Part shown: positions 9,710-36,639 of the stretch, piece by piece | Numbering within the stretch: position 1 is the first letter of the stretch | Layout: the number at the start of each line of letters is the position of its first letter | Assembly (NCBI GenBank): GCA_002723255.1 | Contig: PBNW01000055.1 | Span: 1-36,639, forward strand | Origin: Pelagibacterium sp. | GTDB lineage: Bacteria > Pseudomonadota > Alphaproteobacteria > Rhizobiales > Devosiaceae | Length of the DNA: 36,639 bases | Reading direction: 5' to 3' | Program-made: the position numbers and the translations under genes | The notes under the pieces: generated by a model | The model's input: only the letters and a program-made list of their open reading frames with translations | What the model was told of the DNA's origin: nothing | The model's database searches: none

Positions 9710-9990
9710 GCGGCCTCCTTTGACCAACCCTAGACCTGTTGGTTTTACATGTAAATCGGCAACCCCGTTACCGCCCGTTACGGCTGATAACGTTCCGCCT
9801 GCGCACGAATTGGCCCATATCGCTGAAATCACCGTTGCCTTTGCCGGCATCTGGTGGTTCGGGGCGCCGCGATTGCGGCGGTCTCTTGGCGGAGAGACCT
9901 CTGTTTTTTCCTGTTTGCCGCATGTTTTTTCGCAGTCAGCCAGTTCGTTTCAGACTTGGCCACTCGCGTTTGTTTACTGGTTGGGGGCCA
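9710..9990. promoter_or_regulatory. divergent intergenic region with palindrome and short tandem repeat
   Basis: This 281 bp region separates the divergent membrane-protein and receiver genes. It contains a perfect 12 bp palindrome TTTACATGTAAA at 9744-9755. A 10 bp direct repeat, CCCGTTACCG at 9764-9773 then CCCGTTACGG at 9774-9783, is followed by TAACGTT. ACCAAC near 9723 and GTTGGT near 9738 form an inverted repeat. These lie 35-75 bp upstream of the minus-strand start and could bind a regulator. The right half holds a hairpin pair with a U-run, listed separately. No clear -35/-10 pair could be assigned. Confidence 0.4.
9865..9909 (+). terminator. rho-independent-type terminator upstream of the receiver gene
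   Basis: Two adjacent hairpins end in a U-run. The first is CGCCGC-GATT-GCGGCG (9865-9880). The second is GGTCTCT-TGGCGG-AGAGACC (9880-9899), followed by TCTGTTTTTT to 9909. On the plus strand this is a complete intrinsic terminator, yet no plus-strand gene ends before it. It may end a short RNA starting in 9720-9860 or act as an attenuator in the receiver gene's leader. Confidence 0.6.
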
Positions 9991-28486: not shown

Positions 28487-29791
28487 TCAGCGCAATCTCG
28501 CCTTGGCGGCCTCGCCCGCCACATAGGTCTCGGCAATCACCCGGTCATCCCCGCATGTCTGGAGCAAAAACAGCTCCTCGGACAGGCTTTCCACCTGCTC
28601 CATCTTGAGCGTCATATGGGGCAGGGCTCGGGCGTCGAGCACCACGATATCGGCATCGCTCCCTGGCTCCAGCGTACCGATGGTATGCTCAAGCGATAAG
28701 GCCCGCGCATTGCCCAGCGTCATCATGAAAAAGCTCTCGAGCGGCGAGAGGCGCTGGCCGCGCAATTGCAGCACCTTGTACCCTTCGTCGAGCGTGCGCA
28801 GCATGGAATAGGATGTCCCACCGCCCACATCGGTCGCCACCCCGATCCGCACATTGGATTCCATCAGCCGCTCGCGGTCGAACAGCCCCGACCCGATGAA
28901 CAAATTCGATGTCGGGCAGAACACCGCCACCGATCCGGTCTCCGAAAGCGCTTCGATTTCCCGATCGGTCATGTGAATGCAATGGCCGAGCAATGTCTTG
29001 GGCCCGAGAAGGCCGTAATGCTCATAAACCCCGACGTAGTCCGGCAAATTGGGAAACAGCTCCCTGATAAATTCGATCTCGCCCAGGCTCTCGTTCACAT
29101 GCGTCTGCACATAGGCATCGGAAAATTCGCGCACCAGGTCCTGGGTCATCTCCATCTGCGCATGGGTGGAGGTCAGTGCGAACCGCGGCGTGATCGCGTA
29201 ATGCAGCCGCCCGACGCCATCCCATTTCTCCAGCAATGCCTTGCTTTCGTCATACCCCCGCTGCGGCGTATCGAGCAGCCCTTGGGGCGCATTGCGGCCC
29301 ATCATCACCTTACCGGCGACCATTCGCATGCCGCGCTTTTTCGCCTCAGTGAAAAACGCATCCACCGATTCCGGATGCACCGAGCAATAGACCGCCGCCG
29401 TCGTCGTCCCGTACCGCACCAGTTCGTCACAGAACAGCGAGGCGATCCGCGCCGCATGCTCGGCATCGGCAAAGCGCTGTTCCTCAACGAATGTATAGGT
29501 GTCGAGCCATTCCAAGAGGTCCTTGGCATAGGACCCGATGACCTGCATCTGCGGATAATGGATATGGGTGTCGATAAACCCCGGCAGGATCAGCCCGGGC
29601 CGATGGTCGATCACCTCTGCCTTGGGCGCGACGAGCTTCAGCCCATCATTGTATTCGCCCGTCGAGACGATCCGGCCCTGATCGACAACCACCGCCCCAT
29701 CCTCGATATAGCGGTAGCTGTCGTGATCGTCCGGCCCCGATGGCTCGGAATTGAAGCTCAATACGCGACCGCGCAGAATCTTTGCGGTCAC
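28487..29791 (-). CDS. guaD: guanine deaminase
   Basis: The 434-residue zinc amidohydrolase turns guanine into xanthine and ammonia. The metal site starts in [28 protein letters not shown] (H76, H78), where HYPQ and LLEWL are typical of guanine deaminase. Further blocks are EERFAD-like [40 protein letters not shown] and the late metal aspartate in [17 protein letters not shown]-like [16 protein letters not shown]. The start is GTG 29791, overlapping the puuD stop as GTGA, with GGGGAG upstream. It is the last of the six minus-strand purine genes before glcB and feeds xanthine to the Xdh enzyme. Confidence 0.95.
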
Positions 29792-31017
29792 AGGCTCCGC
29801 TCCCCGGTCACCGACTGGTACCAGACGGACAGCATCTGTCGCTCCTCATCGGTCATGAACGACACGTTTCCCGGCGGCATGGCGTGGCTGCGGGCAGACT
29901 GGATGTAGATTTCCCGCGCGTGTTGGGCGATCAGGTCAGGCGTATCGAGCCGTACATCCTTGGGCGCCATATGCACGCCCTCATAGGCCGGCTCGGCCGC
30001 GTGGCACATCGAGCAGCGGCCAAGCACGATCTGGGATGCCTGCTGAAAATGAGCATCATCCATGAACGCTTGCGATGTCTGGCTCACGCTCCCGGCTTCC
30101 GCCTGCCCCCTGGGATAGCTCGAAAGCCAGATAATCCCGATAAATAGAACAAGCGCCAGCGCAAACGTCCAATATTCGCGCCGTCCGGTCGCATGCATGG
30201 TGTTAAAGAAATGCCGGATCACCACCCCGATCAGAAAGATCAGCCCGGCAATCGCCCAGCTGTATTCTGTGGCGAACGCCAGTGGATAGTGGTTCGAGAG
30301 CATGAAGAACAACACCGGCAGCGTCAGGTAATTGTTGTGCACGCTGCGCTGCTTGCTCTGTGCCCCCAGTGCCGGATCGGGCGCCTCGCCCGCCTTCATC
30401 GAAGCGACGATTTTCTTTTGATTTGGAATGATGATGAAAAAGACATTCGCCGACATGATCGTCGCCGTGAACGCGCCCATATGCAGGAAGGCGGCGCGAC
30501 CGGTAAACACCTGCATATAGCCCCACGACATGGCCAGCAGGATCAAGAACAGGATGATCATCAGCCCGTTCTGACTCTTGCCCAGAACCGATTTGCACAA
30601 CAGATCGTAAAGCACCCAGCCGAGAGCAAGCGAGGCCAGCGAAATGGCGATCGCCACCGGCGCCTCGACATCGAGTACCGTACGGTCGATCAAAAACAGG
30701 TCGGCGCCCGCGTAATAGACGATGATAAGCATCGCGAACCCGGTCAGCCAGGTCGAATAACTCTCCCATTTGAACCAGATCAGGTGCTCGGGCAGGTTTG
30801 GCGGCGCCACCATATATTTGTTGATATGGTAGAACCCGCCCCCATGCACCTGCCACTCCTCACCCTGCACGCCCGCGGGCAGACCGGCATGCTTGCGCAG
30901 CCCAAGATCGAGCGCGATGAAATAAAACTACGAACCGATCCACGCGATCCCCACGATCACATGGCTCCAGCGCACGGCAAACGCCATCCATTCCCAAAAC
31001 AGCGTGAAATCAGTCAT
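29788..31017 (-). pseudogene. puuD: urate hydroxylase/oxidase PuuD with an in-frame amber stop at codon 30
   Basis: Read from ATG 31017, the gene encodes 409 codons of a PuuD-type membrane urate oxidase (urate to 5-hydroxyisourate). Codons 1-29 give MTDFTLFWEW onward to IAWIGS, then TAG at 30928-30930, then FYFIALDLGLRK in the same frame. The family normally has a serine there (IGSSFYF), so a TCG to TAG change of one base explains it. All else is intact: about eight membrane helices, HGGGFYHI near residue 60, and a C-terminal cytochrome c domain with CSMCH at about 335-339 and MPPGN as a candidate distal ligand region. A restart at GTG 30870 (codon 50) would lose the first helix and has no good ribosome site. 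It could be a true pseudogene, suppressed amber, or a sequencing error. The gene lies between xdhC and guaD. Confidence 0.85.
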
Positions 31018-31043: not shown

Positions 31044-31847
31044 TTATCCGGCCAGCGCCCGTAAAATCTCTGCCGCCGTAAGCGCCGCGATCACCTCGGG
31101 TCGCTTGTCATGAACATCGGCCCCGCCGATCGGCATAGCAAGCCTTTCGACCATTTCCGTATCCAGCCCCATGTCCGAAAGCCAGCTTTTGAAGGTGGCC
31201 TTTTTGGTTTTCGAGCCGATCATCCCCACATATGCCGCATCCCCACGCATCAGCGCTTCCGAAGCGACCAGAAAATCGAGCCCATGATCGTGGGTGAGAA
31301 CCACAAAGCACGAGCCCTTCGGCGCCTCGCGCACCAGCGCTTCGGCCACTGGAACGTGCCGCGCTTCCACCCCGTGCGGCACCTTGGCAATTTCGGCTGC
31401 ACGATTGTCCACAACCAGCGTGCGCAACGGCAAAAGCGATAAGGCCTGACCCAGCGCGTTGCCCACATGCCCTGCCCCGAACACATAGACATGGGGCCGC
31501 GCCATATAAGCCCGTTCGGCCCGCACCCGCACATCCTGAGCAACATCGGCATCGACCGCCCGCATACCGATGGCCACGCGACCGCCACAGCATTGCCCGA
31601 TCTCGGGCCCGAGCGGGATATCGAGGGCCGCTGCGGCTTCCCCTGAAGTCAGCGCCTCGCGTGCCCTCGCGATAGCCAGAAATTCGAGTTGACCACCGCC
31701 GATGGTGCCGATTTCGTTCTCGGACGAAACCACCATCCACGCCCCCGCCTCGCGCGGCGTTGAGCCCTTTGCTTCTGTCACTTCGACCAGAACGGCCTGC
31801 CTGTGGCGGTCGAGGAAATCGCGCAATTGTTGCGGCGTTACGCTCAC
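31044..31847 (-). CDS. xdhC: xanthine dehydrogenase accessory protein XdhC
   Basis: The 267-residue cytoplasmic protein binds molybdenum cofactor, helps its sulfuration and inserts it into xanthine dehydrogenase. The N-terminal part has VLVEVTEAKGSTPREAGAWMVV and IGGGQLEFLAI with GQCCGGRV, all typical of XdhC/CoxI. The C-terminal Rossmann part begins VYVFGAGHVGNALGQAL and contains YVGMIGSKTKKATF. The start is GTG 31847, overlapping the xdhB stop as GTGA. It is followed by puuD after 26 bp. Length matches the family. Confidence 0.95.
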   Translation of the reverse strand: MSVTPQQLRDFLDRHRQAVLVEVTEAKGSTPREAGAWMVVSSENEIGTIGGGQLEFLAIARAREALTSGEAAAALDIPLGPEIGQCCGGRVAIGMRAVDADVAQDVRVRAERAYMARPHVYVFGAGHVGNALGQALSLLPLRTLVVDNRAAEIAKVPHGVEARHVPVAEALVREAPKGSCFVVLTHDHGLDFLVASEALMRGDAAYVGMIGSKTKKATFKSWLSDMGLDTEMVERLAMPIGGADVHDKRPEVIAALTAAEILRALAG

Positions 31848-34180
31848 CGCCCTGCCGCCTCGCGCTTTATTCGCTCGATGGTCATCAGCACCCGTTCGGG
31901 CGTGGCCGGTGCATCCATGCGCGGGGCGATCTTGTAGTCGGCAACGCTTGCCGCCGCCATCGAGAGCGCTTCGAACACCGAGAGCGCCAGCATGAAGGGC
32001 GGCTCACCCACTGCCTTGGAACGGCGAATAGTCGGGGCGCTGTTGGCCGACCATTCGGCCAGCTTTACCTCAAATATCCTGGGGACGTCAGACACCACGG
32101 GGATCTTGTAGGTTGAAGGCGCGTGTGTGCGCAATTGCCCCTTGTCGTCCCACCACAATTCCTCGGTGGTCAGCCACCCCATGCCCTGGATGAACCCGCC
32201 CTCGATCTGCCCGATATCAATCGCCGGATTGAGCGATTTGCCCACATCGTGCATCACATCGACGCGCTCCACCATGTATTCCCCGGTCAGGCTGTCGACC
32301 ACCACTTCCGAACACGCAGCACCATAAGCGAAATAGAAGAACGGCTGGCCCTTGCCCGCCGCTCGGTCCCAGTGAATGTCGGGCGTCTTGTAAAACCCTG
32401 CAGCCGAGAGCTGCACGCGGGCCAGATAGGCCTGATCGATGAAATCGGCCCAGTCATAACGCTGGTTGCCCACCATCACGCAATTGGGCTCGAAGCTGAT
32501 GGCGTCCTCGGGCACGTTGAACTTGTCCATCGCGAACCGGACCAGCCGGTCCTTGATCTGCTCGGCGGCATTGGCAGCGGCCATGCCGTTAAGGTCCGAT
32601 CCAGAGGAAGCCGCAGTGGCCGATGTATTAGGCACCTTGCCGGTCGTCGTTGCGGTAATCTTGACCTTGTCGAGATCGATCTGGAAGCAATCGGCCAGAA
32701 CCTGCGCCACCTTGACGTAAAGCCCCTGCCCCATCTCGGTGCCGCCATGGTTGAGATGGACCGACCCATCGCGATAGACATGGACCAGCGCCCCGGCCTG
32801 ATTGAAGGCCGTCATGGTAAAACTGATCCCGAACTTGACCGGCGTCAGCGCTATGCCGCGCTTGAGGACATTGGACGTCCTGTTGAACGCAATGATCTCC
32901 TCGCGCCGCCGGCGATAGTGCGAACTCGCCTCGAGCTCATCCACCACCCGTCCGATGATGTTGTCGGTTACGGTCTGATGATAGGGCGTGAGATTGCGGT
33001 CGGTTTCGCCATAAAAATTGGCCCTGCGGATATCGAGCGGGTCCTTGCCCAGCGCGTAGGCGATGTCCTCGATCCAGCGCTCGCAGCCCACCATGCCTTG
33101 CGGCCCGCCGAACCCGCGGAACGCAGTGTTGGAAACCGTGTTGGTCTTGAGCGGTTTGGATTTGAGCCGCACATTGGGGTAGAAATAGGCGTTGTCGGCA
33201 TGAAACAGGGCCCGGTCGGTCACCGGCCCCGAAAGATCGGCCGAGAACCCGCACCGCGCGGCAAATACCGCATCGACCGCCTCGATCCGGCCCTCATCGT
33301 CATAGCCGACTTCATAATCGACAACGAAATCATGCCGCTTGCCGGTGGCGATCATGTCGTCGTCCCGATCGGGCCTGATCTTGACGGCGCGATTGAATTT
33401 CTTGGCCGCGATGGCAGCAACCGCCGCAAAAAGATTGCTCTGGGTTTCCTTGCCACCAAACCCGCCGCCCATGCGCCGGACCACGACATTGACGGCGTTG
33501 GATGGCACGCCCAGTGCGTGGCCCACCATGTGCTGGACTTCGCTCGGATGCTGGGTGGAGGAATGAACGGTCACCTCGTCATCCTCGCCGGGTATCGCCA
33601 TGGCGATATGGCCTTCGAGATAGAAATGGTCCTGTCCGCCCATTTCCATGGTGCCTTTAACCCGGTTTTTGGCAGCCACCATGCCCGCCGCCACATTGCC
33701 CCGTTCAAGCGTCATGCCCGGAGTCACCAGCGCTCCCCCTGCCTCGCGCGCCGCAGCGACATCGAGTGCAAAGGGCAATTCGGTGTAGCTCACCTGCGCA
33801 AGCCTGGCCGCCCGCCGCGCCGCTTCGCGCGTCGTCGCGACCACAGCAAACAGCGGCTGCCCGAAAAATTCGACCCGCGTTTCGGCAAAGATCGGCTCGT
33901 CATGCTTGCCGGGCTGGGAAATGTCGTTATGCCCGGGCACGTCCGCGGCTGTCAGCACCCCGACCACGCCGGGCGCCTGCCGTACCGCTTCGAGCGCCAG
34001 CGACTGAATTTCCCCATGCGCGTTGGTGGAAAGACCCAGATAGGCATGCAGCGTTCCCGCGGGTTCAAGCATGTCATCGATATATTCGGCCGTTCCCGAT
34101 ACATGCTTGTGCCCGGAATCGTGCTTTTGCGGCACATGCACCCCGCCGCTTATCGTGGCTTTGGTGTCGAGCGCTGTCAC
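31844..34180 (-). CDS. xdhB: xanthine dehydrogenase molybdopterin-binding subunit
   Basis: The 778-residue large subunit holds the molybdenum cofactor and oxidises hypoxanthine and xanthine to urate. Visible blocks are HKHVSGTAEYIDDM near the N-terminus, MGGGFGGKETQ, RGFGGPQGM, LNHGGTEMGQGLYVKVAQV, SAATAASSGSDLNGMA and the catalytic glutamate region KAVGEPPFMLALSVFEAL close to the end. Length is that of bacterial XdhB. The start is GTG 34180, touching the xdhA stop (TAGTG), with AGGTGG upstream. It is coupled to xdhC downstream. Xanthine dehydrogenase is favoured over CO dehydrogenase or aldehyde oxidase by its neighbours guaD, puuD, uraH and puuE. Confidence 0.96.
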   Translation of the reverse strand: MTALDTKATISGGVHVPQKHDSGHKHVSGTAEYIDDMLEPAGTLHAYLGLSTNAHGEIQSLALEAVRQAPGVVGVLTAADVPGHNDISQPGKHDEPIFAETRVEFFGQPLFAVVATTREAARRAARLAQVSYTELPFALDVAAAREAGGALVTPGMTLERGNVAAGMVAAKNRVKGTMEMGGQDHFYLEGHIAMAIPGEDDEVTVHSSTQHPSEVQHMVGHALGVPSNAVNVVVRRMGGGFGGKETQSNLFAAVAAIAAKKFNRAVKIRPDRDDDMIATGKRHDFVVDYEVGYDDEGRIEAVDAVFAARCGFSADLSGPVTDRALFHADNAYFYPNVRLKSKPLKTNTVSNTAFRGFGGPQGMVGCERWIEDIAYALGKDPLDIRRANFYGETDRNLTPYHQTVTDNIIGRVVDELEASSHYRRRREEIIAFNRTSNVLKRGIALTPVKFGISFTMTAFNQAGALVHVYRDGSVHLNHGGTEMGQGLYVKVAQVLADCFQIDLDKVKITATTTGKVPNTSATAASSGSDLNGMAAANAAEQIKDRLVRFAMDKFNVPEDAISFEPNCVMVGNQRYDWADFIDQAYLARVQLSAAGFYKTPDIHWDRAAGKGQPFFYFAYGAACSEVVVDSLTGEYMVERVDVMHDVGKSLNPAIDIGQIEGGFIQGMGWLTTEELWWDDKGQLRTHAPSTYKIPVVSDVPRIFEVKLAEWSANSAPTIRRSKAVGEPPFMLALSVFEALSMAAASVADYKIAPRMDAPATPERVLMTIERIKREAAGR

Positions 34181-35639: not shown

Positions 35640-35996
35640 TCAGCTCCCGCGATAGGTCGAATAGCCGAAGGGAGAGACCAGCAACGGCACATGATAATGC
35701 GCCTGGCTGTCACTCACCCTGAAATCGACTGCCACCACGTCGAGAAATTCGACGGCTTTGCCGTTGATTCTGCTGAAATATTCTCCGACATGGAAGTTCA
35801 GCCGGTAGGCCCCTTCCGCCAATGATTCCCCCTCCAGCAAAGGCCCGTCGCACCGCCCGTCATCATTGGTGACCACCGACCGCTCGAACACTGCCGCCTC
35901 GCCATTTACCCTGTAAAGATCGATGGTCATTCCCTTCGCAGGGGTCCCGTTCGCGGTATCTAGAACGTGGGTCGTCAGCCGTCCGGTTGTGGTCAT
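35640..35996 (-). CDS. uraH: 5-hydroxyisourate hydrolase (transthyretin-like)
   Basis: The 118-residue enzyme hydrolyses 5-hydroxyisourate, the product of urate oxidation, to OHCU. It begins MTTTGRLTTHVLDTANGTPAKGM, where the histidine in TTHVLD (H10) is an active-site residue. It ends in HYHVPLLVSPFGYSTYRGS with the conserved YRGS tetrapeptide. Length is typical. The frame is open to 36146, but ATG 35996 has GGAG upstream and matches the family start. No N-terminal signal is present, so it is cytoplasmic. It heads the minus-strand purine operon and diverges from puuE. The next enzyme, OHCU decarboxylase (UraD), is not found in the window. Confidence 0.96.
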   Translation of the reverse strand: MTTTGRLTTHVLDTANGTPAKGMTIDLYRVNGEAAVFERSVVTNDDGRCDGPLLEGESLAEGAYRLNFHVGEYFSRINGKAVEFLDVVAVDFRVSDSQAHYHVPLLVSPFGYSTYRGS

Positions 35997-36078
35997 GCCT
36001 GCTCCAAGCGCCATTGGATTTTCCCCAACTATCAACCCAAAAATTGCCCTGCGAAAGGGGGCGGGCACAGAATTTTTT

Positions 36079-36092
36079 ACCACATGGTCCAA
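36079..36092. promoter_or_regulatory. operator-like site in the uraH/puuE divergent promoter
   Basis: ACCACATGGTCCAA lies inside a larger imperfect palindrome bounded by AATTTTT (36071-36077) and AAAAATT (36091-36097). The core ACCA-CA-TGGT is symmetric. It is 53 bp before puuE and 83 bp before uraH and so could control both. Its partner is at 19324-19337, upstream of the purine transporter. The rest of 35997-36144 shows no assignable -35/-10. Confidence 0.45.
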
Positions 36093-36144
36093 AAATTTGT
36101 GTCTAAGGTACGCTCCTGTTTGTCTGCCCGTCATGGAGTACGCC

Positions 36145-36639
36145 ATGCGTTATCCCCGCGATCTGGCCGGATACGGCCCCAACCCACCCCATGCCAATTG
36201 GCCCGGCGGCGCCAATATCGCGATCCAGTTCGTCCTCAACTACGAAGAGGGCGGGGAAAACAACATCCTGCATGGCGATGAGGCCTCCGAAGCCTTTCTG
36301 GCCGATGTGGTGGGCGCCGCGCCCTGGCCCGGTGCGCGGCACTGGAACATCGAATCCATGTATGAATATGGTGCCCGGGTCGGTTTCTGGCGGCTGCACA
36401 AGCTGTTCACGCAGAACAACCTGCCCGTTACGGTCTATGGCGTTGCCACCGCGCTGATGCGCGCGCCGCAGCAGGTGCAGGCCATGCTCGACGCCGATTG
36501 GGAAATCGCCTCCCATGGCTATAAATGGGTCGAGCACAAGGACATGGAGCGGCAGGACGAAGCGGCCCAGATCGCCGAAGCAGTAAGGCTGCACACCGTC
36601 GCGAGGGGAACGCGGCCGCTCGGCTGGTACACGGGGCGT
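36145..36639 (+). CDS. puuE: allantoinase PuuE, polysaccharide-deacetylase type (partial, runs off the window)
   Basis: The visible 165 residues start MRYPRDLAGYGPNPPHANWPGG, the recognisable beginning of metal-independent allantoinase PuuE. NIAIQFVLNYEEGGENNILHGD follows, then RHWNIESMYEYGARVGFWRL, PVTVYGVATAL and WEIASHGYKWVEHKD, all family blocks. It hydrolyses allantoin to allantoate. An in-frame ATG at 36133 exists, but ATG 36145 has TGGAG seven bases upstream and fits the family start. It diverges from uraH. In some relatives a UraD domain is fused to PuuE or lies directly after it. The missing uraD may therefore be just beyond the window. Confidence 0.95.
   Translation, partial: MRYPRDLAGYGPNPPHANWPGGANIAIQFVLNYEEGGENNILHGDEASEAFLADVVGAAPWPGARHWNIESMYEYGARVGFWRLHKLFTQNNLPVTVYGVATALMRAPQQVQAMLDADWEIASHGYKWVEHKDMERQDEAAQIAEAVRLHTVARGTRPLGWYTGR

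What the first reader, a model, noticed from the sequence alone, without database searches (positions are those of the whole stretch)
30928..30930. Single amber codon interrupts an otherwise intact puuD in a complete urate pathway
Reading from ATG 31017, codon 30 is TAG exactly where the family has serine (IGS-stop-FYF). The remaining 379 codons, including the heme motif CSMCH and the coupled GTGA junction with guaD, are undamaged. A one-base TCG to TAG change explains it. Lack of further decay suggests a very recent mutation, a sequencing error, amber suppression or a restart downstream. If real, the strain would stall at urate although all neighbours are kept.
Basis: partly seen in the sequence, partly recalled or inferred. 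Interest (0 to 1): 0.75.

Follow-up and report, generated by a model that had tools for sequence, protein, structure and literature searches.

The report
Strain-specific stop codon in urate oxidase
One draft genome of a Pelagibacterium bacterium carries a single early stop codon in its only recognisable urate oxidase gene, which another genome of the same species keeps intact; this looks like an ordinary, recent gene-breaking mutation (or, less likely, a consensus error) and not a new mechanism.

Summary
In detail: codon 30 of puuD (30928-30930, minus strand) is TAG; the other 408 codons, the CSMCH motif and the guaD overlap are intact. The window is contig C55 of a Pelagibacterium draft genome, 84.4% complete. 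All 110 other loci read have serine there. The decisive comparison is a 99%-complete genome of the same species, G061: 99.0% identical over this stretch, 14 base differences in puuD, and a serine codon one substitution away. The stop is therefore private to this genome. No rescue was found in the assembled part: no second PuuD, PF01014 uricase or HpxO over cut-off; no CUA tRNA among 33 readable of 34 tRNA hits; RF1 present; TAG used as a normal stop. Codon positions of private changes show no error signature, though private transversions are somewhat frequent; a real mutation is favoured, not proven. Strain-specific gene breaks occur both ways, so this is ordinary. "Complete pathway" is overstated: puuE is cut by the contig end and uraD was not found in the assembly.

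The parts
29788..31017 (-). puuD, membrane-bound cytochrome c urate oxidase gene, interrupted at codon 30
   Evidence: 409-codon frame with one internal TAG; Urate_ox_N 3e-120 on the part after the stop; 94% aa identity to G008, G009 and G011
30928..30930 (-). TAG at codon 30, serine in relatives; private to this genome
   Evidence: 110 of 110 other loci read have Ser; the same-species genome G061 has a Ser codon
30931..31017 (-). the 29 codons before the stop
   Evidence: translation
29788..30870 (-). longest listed frame after the stop, from a possible restart codon (GTG, codon 50), 360 aa, lacking the first helix
   Evidence: ORF list; 21 of the 157 positions at least 98% conserved lie in residues 1-49
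30001..30015 (-). CXXCH heme motif (CSMCH, residues 335-339), intact
   Evidence: sequence and translation; alignment
28487..29791 (-). guaD, guanine deaminase, start codon overlapping the puuD stop
   Evidence: TIGR02967 8.8e-170
31044..31847 (-). xdhC, xanthine dehydrogenase accessory protein
   Evidence: TIGR02964 9.3e-89
31844..34180 (-). xdhB, xanthine dehydrogenase molybdopterin subunit
   Evidence: TIGR02965, 1344.8 bits
34180..35637 (-). xdhA, xanthine dehydrogenase small subunit
   Evidence: TIGR02963 4.7e-188
35640..36146 (-). uraH, hydroxyisourate hydrolase, the step after PuuD
   Evidence: TIGR02962 4e-39
36112..36639 (+). puuE (allantoinase), cut by the contig end; fused to uraD in G061; start codon not established
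   Evidence: TIGR03212 model positions 1-163 of 297; G061 L225:16225-17865 matches TIGR03212 and TIGR03164
24097..25806 (+). ade, adenine deaminase, in the same purine cluster
   Evidence: TIGR01178 1.5e-178

Best explanation
A recent nonsense mutation, private to this strain or to the majority of the population sampled, has inactivated puuD. Shown: a single-base difference from the same-species genome puts TAG where that genome and the other homologues read have serine; the rest of the gene has no gap and no other stop; no other urate oxidase family was found in the assembled part of the genome (84% complete). Inferred: translation ends after 29 residues, so neither the membrane domain nor the heme domain is made and urate is not oxidised. 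Xanthine dehydrogenase would then leave urate as an end product, and guaD, whose start overlaps the puuD stop, may be translated less because the coupling is broken. The gene is probably needed only when purines are the nitrogen source, which is why such a loss can appear.
For: Same-species genome G061 (listed as 99% complete) is 99.0% identical over 1701 bases with 17 mismatches and no gaps; puuD differs at 14 bases in 14 codons: the stop, 10 synonymous and 3 missense codons (118, 341, 361). Seven of seven other Pelagibacterium-group sequences aligned (G061, G008, G009, G011, G007, G010, G001) have Ser, so the stop is derived in G000. Over 29,107 coding sites in 21 hand-picked window genes polarised with G009, G000-private changes fall 47:137 at codon positions 1+2 versus 3, against 41:118 for G061 (Fisher p = 1.0); with two outgroups 35:67 against 29:48 (p = 0.75). 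So there is no surplus of error-like changes. Strain-specific breaks are ordinary here: 2 further ambers inside genes among 173 compared and candidate breaks in the other direction among 181. No rescue found. A puuD deletion in Agrobacterium fabrum abolished growth on urate and urate consumption (PMC4562309, abstract and passages seen).
Against: No reads are available, so the base call cannot be checked. The genome is an incomplete draft. The change is a transversion, and private transversions are more frequent in G000 than in G061: 69 of 184 against 44 of 159 with one outgroup (p = 0.065) and 36 of 102 against 14 of 77 with two outgroups (p = 0.012). Most G000 transversions (52 of 69) lie at third codon positions, as real changes do, and the share at positions 1+2 is not higher than in G061 (17 of 69 against 14 of 44, p = 0.52), but the excess is unexplained. 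Loss of urate oxidation was not tested.
Confidence: 0.78

Rival explanations
1. Consensus or assembly error: the strain has a normal serine codon and the draft contig carries one wrong base.
For: Draft, 80 contigs, 84.4% complete; no reads; nothing else in the gene is damaged; three genes in about 231 kb aligned carry strain-specific ambers; surplus of private transversions in G000 (p = 0.065 with one outgroup, 0.012 with two).
Against: G000-private changes have the same codon-position profile as those of G061 (47:137 against 41:118, p = 1.0), so errors cannot be frequent in this contig; net frameshifting indels are few (4 of 173 genes, three of them at codons 1, 12 and 47 of frames whose start is uncertain).
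Confidence: 0.17
2. Amber suppression or read-through: TAG is decoded as an amino acid, and full-length PuuD is made.
For: Downstream frame undamaged; the three nonsense changes accepted as lying inside genes are all TAG.
Against: No CTA anticodon among the 33 tRNA hits with a readable anticodon (one further hit unreadable). A tRNA-shaped TCTAR...GTTCRA pattern gave 4 hits in G000, of which ARAGORN calls only a normal tRNA-Glu a tRNA; in G061 it gave 3, one identical to that tRNA-Glu, two not examined further. RF1 is present with no stop inside. TAG ends 36 of 165 aligned genes. Codon usage alone predicts 58-61% of new stops to be TAG, so three of three has a chance of 0.19-0.22. The three codons in G061 stand for three different amino acids (Ser, Glu, Gln). 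No RNA structure stands out after the stop.
Confidence: 0.03
3. Restart at a downstream codon (for example GTG at 30870) gives a shorter working PuuD.
For: A 360-codon frame exists.
Against: It lacks the first helix; R16, H19, W26, G28, S29, S30 and F31 are among positions at least 98% conserved in 100 sequences, and residues 1-49 are about as conserved (21 of 49) as residues 50-295 (115 of 246). Helices I, II, V and VI are described as the conserved core (PMC4562309, passage). The alignments of the 80 loci begin at query residue 1 or 3.
Confidence: 0.02

Closest known systems
PuuD, cytochrome c urate oxidase (COG3748, DUF989, Pfam Urate_ox_N), Agrobacterium fabrum Atu2314
   Same: Same family, same domain order, CXXCH motif, purine-degradation neighbourhood (PMC4562309 passages)
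   Different: Interrupted by TAG at Ser30 in this genome
puuD of same-species genome G061
   Same: Same flanks, 409 codons, 14 base differences
   Different: Serine codon at position 30, intact
Ordinary strain-specific nonsense pseudogenes of bacteria (category recalled, from no call)
   Same: Single stop, no further disabling change, close relative intact, gene probably conditionally dispensable
   Different: Nothing that was measured here sets it apart

Membership tests
PuuD urate oxidase | Urate_ox_N (DUF989) membrane domain | tested here: met
   3e-120, profile positions 27-294 of 295 from the part after the stop alone
PuuD urate oxidase | C-terminal cytochrome c with CXXCH and distal Met | tested here: met
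   C335, C338, H339 and M380 are among positions at least 98% conserved in 100 sequences and are present here; that such residues bind heme is from PMC4562309 (passage)
PuuD urate oxidase | Uninterrupted reading frame giving the whole protein | tested here: not met
   TAG at codon 30
PuuD urate oxidase | Oxidises urate | not testable with these tools
   needs an assay
Recent nonsense pseudogene | Close relatives intact at the site | tested here: met
   Ser in G061 and in 110 of 110 other loci
Recent nonsense pseudogene | No further disabling changes | tested here: met
   no gap and no other stop against G061
Recent nonsense pseudogene | Stop present in the cells, not only in the consensus | not testable with these tools
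   no reads held
Amber-suppressed or recoded gene | A tRNA with CUA anticodon | tested here: not met
   none among 33 readable of 34 hits in the assembled part; the genome is 84.4% complete, so absence is not shown for the rest
Amber-suppressed or recoded gene | TAG not used as a normal terminator, or RF1 lost | tested here: not met
   TAG ends 36 of 165 aligned genes; prfA at 503.3 bits against a cut-off of 423.25

The most novel reading that the evidence does not exclude
This strain carries an amber-reading tRNA in the unassembled part of its genome, so that PuuD and at least two other amber-bearing genes (a chemoreceptor and a 1118-residue protein) are still made full length.
Probability: 0.02. 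Interest if true: 0.55.

Novelty: new member of a known kind. Interest (0 to 1): 0.12.

Why it matters
If real, the strain would be a natural loss of urate oxidase inside an otherwise kept purine-degradation cluster, so it might release urate and could serve as a natural control for PuuD function. It does not change any general understanding. Its practical lesson is that a single stop in a draft genome can be placed quickly with a genome of the same species.

Tried and rejected
One search flagged one TAG in the distant G045 hit; at codon 30 that gene has serine (locus L111), so it is not the same event, and I did not place its TAG. For HpxO the model had no control genome over its cut-off, so that negative rests on the score gap alone (best 69.5 against 500 bits, 9 sub-threshold matches).

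A first scan for broken genes against G009 and a first count against G061 (185 frames, 11 nonsense, 9 net frameshifts) were full of antisense shadow frames. I scanned 18 of the affected G061 frames with Pfam: 12 have no match. The 6 with a match are an HD-domain protein, an ABC transporter, an arginyl-tRNA synthetase-like protein, a Na/Ca exchanger, a frame with a weak TPR match under cut-off, and a frame with a DUF4168 match (L265:5004-5939) whose one-base difference I did not resolve. I replaced these counts by a codon-usage gene caller (173 genes, 4 nonsense, 4 net frameshifts), which by itself is no proof that a frame is a gene. Of the 4 nonsense, one lies at codon 6 of an upstream extension of xdhB and was not counted as a break. 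Of the 4 net frameshifts, only the one near the C-terminus of the ABC transporter (codon 566 of 618) looks like a change inside coding sequence; the others lie at codons 1, 12 and 47 of frames whose start is uncertain. The reverse count gave 4 nonsense and 3 net frameshifts in 181 genes; the nonsense lie at codons 30, 5, 4 and 35, and some may be start-site artefacts; one of the 3 frameshifts is the same ABC-transporter difference seen from the other side.

RNA folding after the stop showed less structure than most shuffles (z = +1.56, 194 of 200 shuffles fold at least as well), so no recoding element is suggested. No PDB chain sequence matches G061 PuuD at E up to 0.1. Paper searches, seen as listings: PuuD + urate oxidase + cytochrome c gave 3 papers, of which I read passages of one; Pelagibacterium + urate gave one paper, on tick microbiomes; four terms on premature stops in metagenome-assembled genomes gave none. 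Structure prediction was not run, because it would not separate mutation from error.

Full report
Observation. The minus-strand frame from ATG 31017 is puuD. It has 409 codons, one of which, codon 30 at 30928-30930, is TAG. The part after the stop alone matches Pfam Urate_ox_N at 3e-120. The CSMCH motif and the overlap of the puuD TGA with the guaD GTG are intact.

Where it lies. The window is the whole of contig C55 (36,639 bases) of a genome of 3,020,114 bases in 80 contigs, 84.4% complete. The best named relatives of its PuuD are in Pelagibacterium (P. luteolum 91%, P. lacus 88%; best of all a metagenome-assembled Rhizobiales genome, 93%). The 11 other genomes of the same genus carry it at 74-94% identity. 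A match was found in 48 of 61 genomes searched, own included, one of them weak.

Chance. I read codon 30 in 111 loci: the window's own copy has TAG and the other 110 have serine. These loci come from two searches that partly hold the same genomes. One search gave loci for 30 of its 49 listed matches, and one search kept 80 of 549. With identical proteins removed, S30 is at least 98% identical in 100 sequences. So the stop sits at a near-invariant residue.

The same-species genome. A genus-wide search brought up G061, labelled same species, 3.9 Mb in 2 contigs, 99% complete. Its puuD region is 99.0% identical (17 mismatches, no gaps, in 1701 bases), and it has a serine codon at position 30, one substitution from TAG. 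Within puuD the two genomes differ in 14 codons: the stop, 10 synonymous and 3 missense. Outgroups polarise the stop as derived in G000; of the missense changes, codon 361 and probably codon 118 changed in G000 (between Glu and Asp) and codon 341 in G061. There is no sign of long decay.

Mutation or error. Over 29,107 coding sites in 21 window genes polarised with G009, changes private to G000 split 47:137 between codon positions 1+2 and 3; those private to G061 split 41:118 (p = 1.0). Random consensus errors would load positions 1 and 2. With two agreeing outgroups and 19,661 sites the counts are 35:67 and 29:48 (p = 0.75). A result that points the other way: transversions are more common among G000-private changes, 69 of 184 against 44 of 159 (p = 0.065), or 36 of 102 against 14 of 77 with two outgroups (p = 0.012). 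They lie mostly at third positions (52 of 69), and their share at positions 1+2 is not raised (17 of 69 against 14 of 44, p = 0.52), so they look like real changes, but the excess is unexplained and the stop is itself a transversion. Errors are thus not frequent in this contig; one error at this base cannot be excluded.

How unusual is a broken gene here? In 230,679 aligned bases between G000 and G061, 173 genes called by codon usage were compared: 1431 synonymous and 395 missense codons, 4 nonsense, 4 net frameshifts. Three of the nonsense lie inside genes: puuD; a 716-residue chemoreceptor (codon 169; MCPsignal and HAMP); and a 1118-residue protein without a clear family (codon 290). In the reverse comparison 181 genes gave 4 nonsense in G061, all within 35 codons of the called start, and 3 net frameshifts. 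The numbers are small and start sites uncertain, so a modest excess of breaks inside genes in G000 can be neither shown nor excluded. That the three are all ambers fits codon usage: 58-61% of single-step new stops are expected to be TAG, which gives 0.19-0.22 for three of three.

Could the gene still work? Assembled tRNAs: 34 hits; ARAGORN named no CTA anticodon, with one tRNA-like hit unreadable. Release factor 1 is present, and TAG ends 36 of 165 aligned genes in G000. A restart at GTG 30870 would lose the first 49 residues, which are about as conserved as the rest of the membrane domain. No second urate oxidase was found: one PuuD, no PF01014 (the model found 2 of 14 control genomes), HpxO-like hits far under the cut-off (best 69.5 against 500 bits; no control genome reached the cut-off). 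All these negatives concern the assembled part only.

The pathway. xdhA, xdhB, xdhC, uraH, guaD and ade are intact frames in the window. puuE runs off the contig end. In G061 the same gene is a puuE-uraD fusion of 546 residues, and uraD was not found in the G000 assembly, most likely because of the contig break.

Consequence (inferred). A puuD deletion in A. fabrum stopped growth on urate and urate consumption (PMC4562309; abstract and passages only). By analogy this strain should stop at urate. Loss of translational coupling might also lower GuaD. Neither was tested.

Verdict. A real feature of the sequence, ordinary in kind: a private nonsense mutation (about 0.78) or a consensus error (about 0.17), with little room for suppression or restart. 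The odds are my judgement; no call computes them.

Noticed in passing
L213 (G000:C80:1-20000), about 15.6 kb, and L211 (G000:C75:1-20000), about 11.8 kb; positions worked out by hand: Two more strain-specific amber codons inside genes that are intact in G061: a chemoreceptor (codon 169 of 716) and a 1118-residue protein of no clear family (codon 290).
   Followed up: partly
L213:12825 (G000:C80): A one-base difference (one base fewer than in G061) near the C-terminus (codon 566 of 618) of an ABC transporter with membrane and ATPase domains; the frame in G000 ends at 612 residues.
   Followed up: partly
L167:11368-11442 (-), G000:C54: A weak tRNA-like gene (42.8 bits) whose anticodon ARAGORN could not read ('gc'); similar DNA in 5 of 13 genus genomes including its own, two of these over fewer than 40 bases, and not in G061.
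   Followed up: partly
window 36112-36639 and L225:16225-17865: puuE is cut by the contig end; in the same-species genome it is fused to uraD in one 546-residue frame.
   Followed up: yes
window 9909: A T-run one base shorter than in G061, upstream of the ATG at 9850; it may alter only an N-terminal extension of the frame.
   Followed up: partly
window coding genes: Changes private to G000 hold more transversions than those private to G061 (36 of 102 against 14 of 77, p = 0.012); cause unknown.
   Followed up: partly
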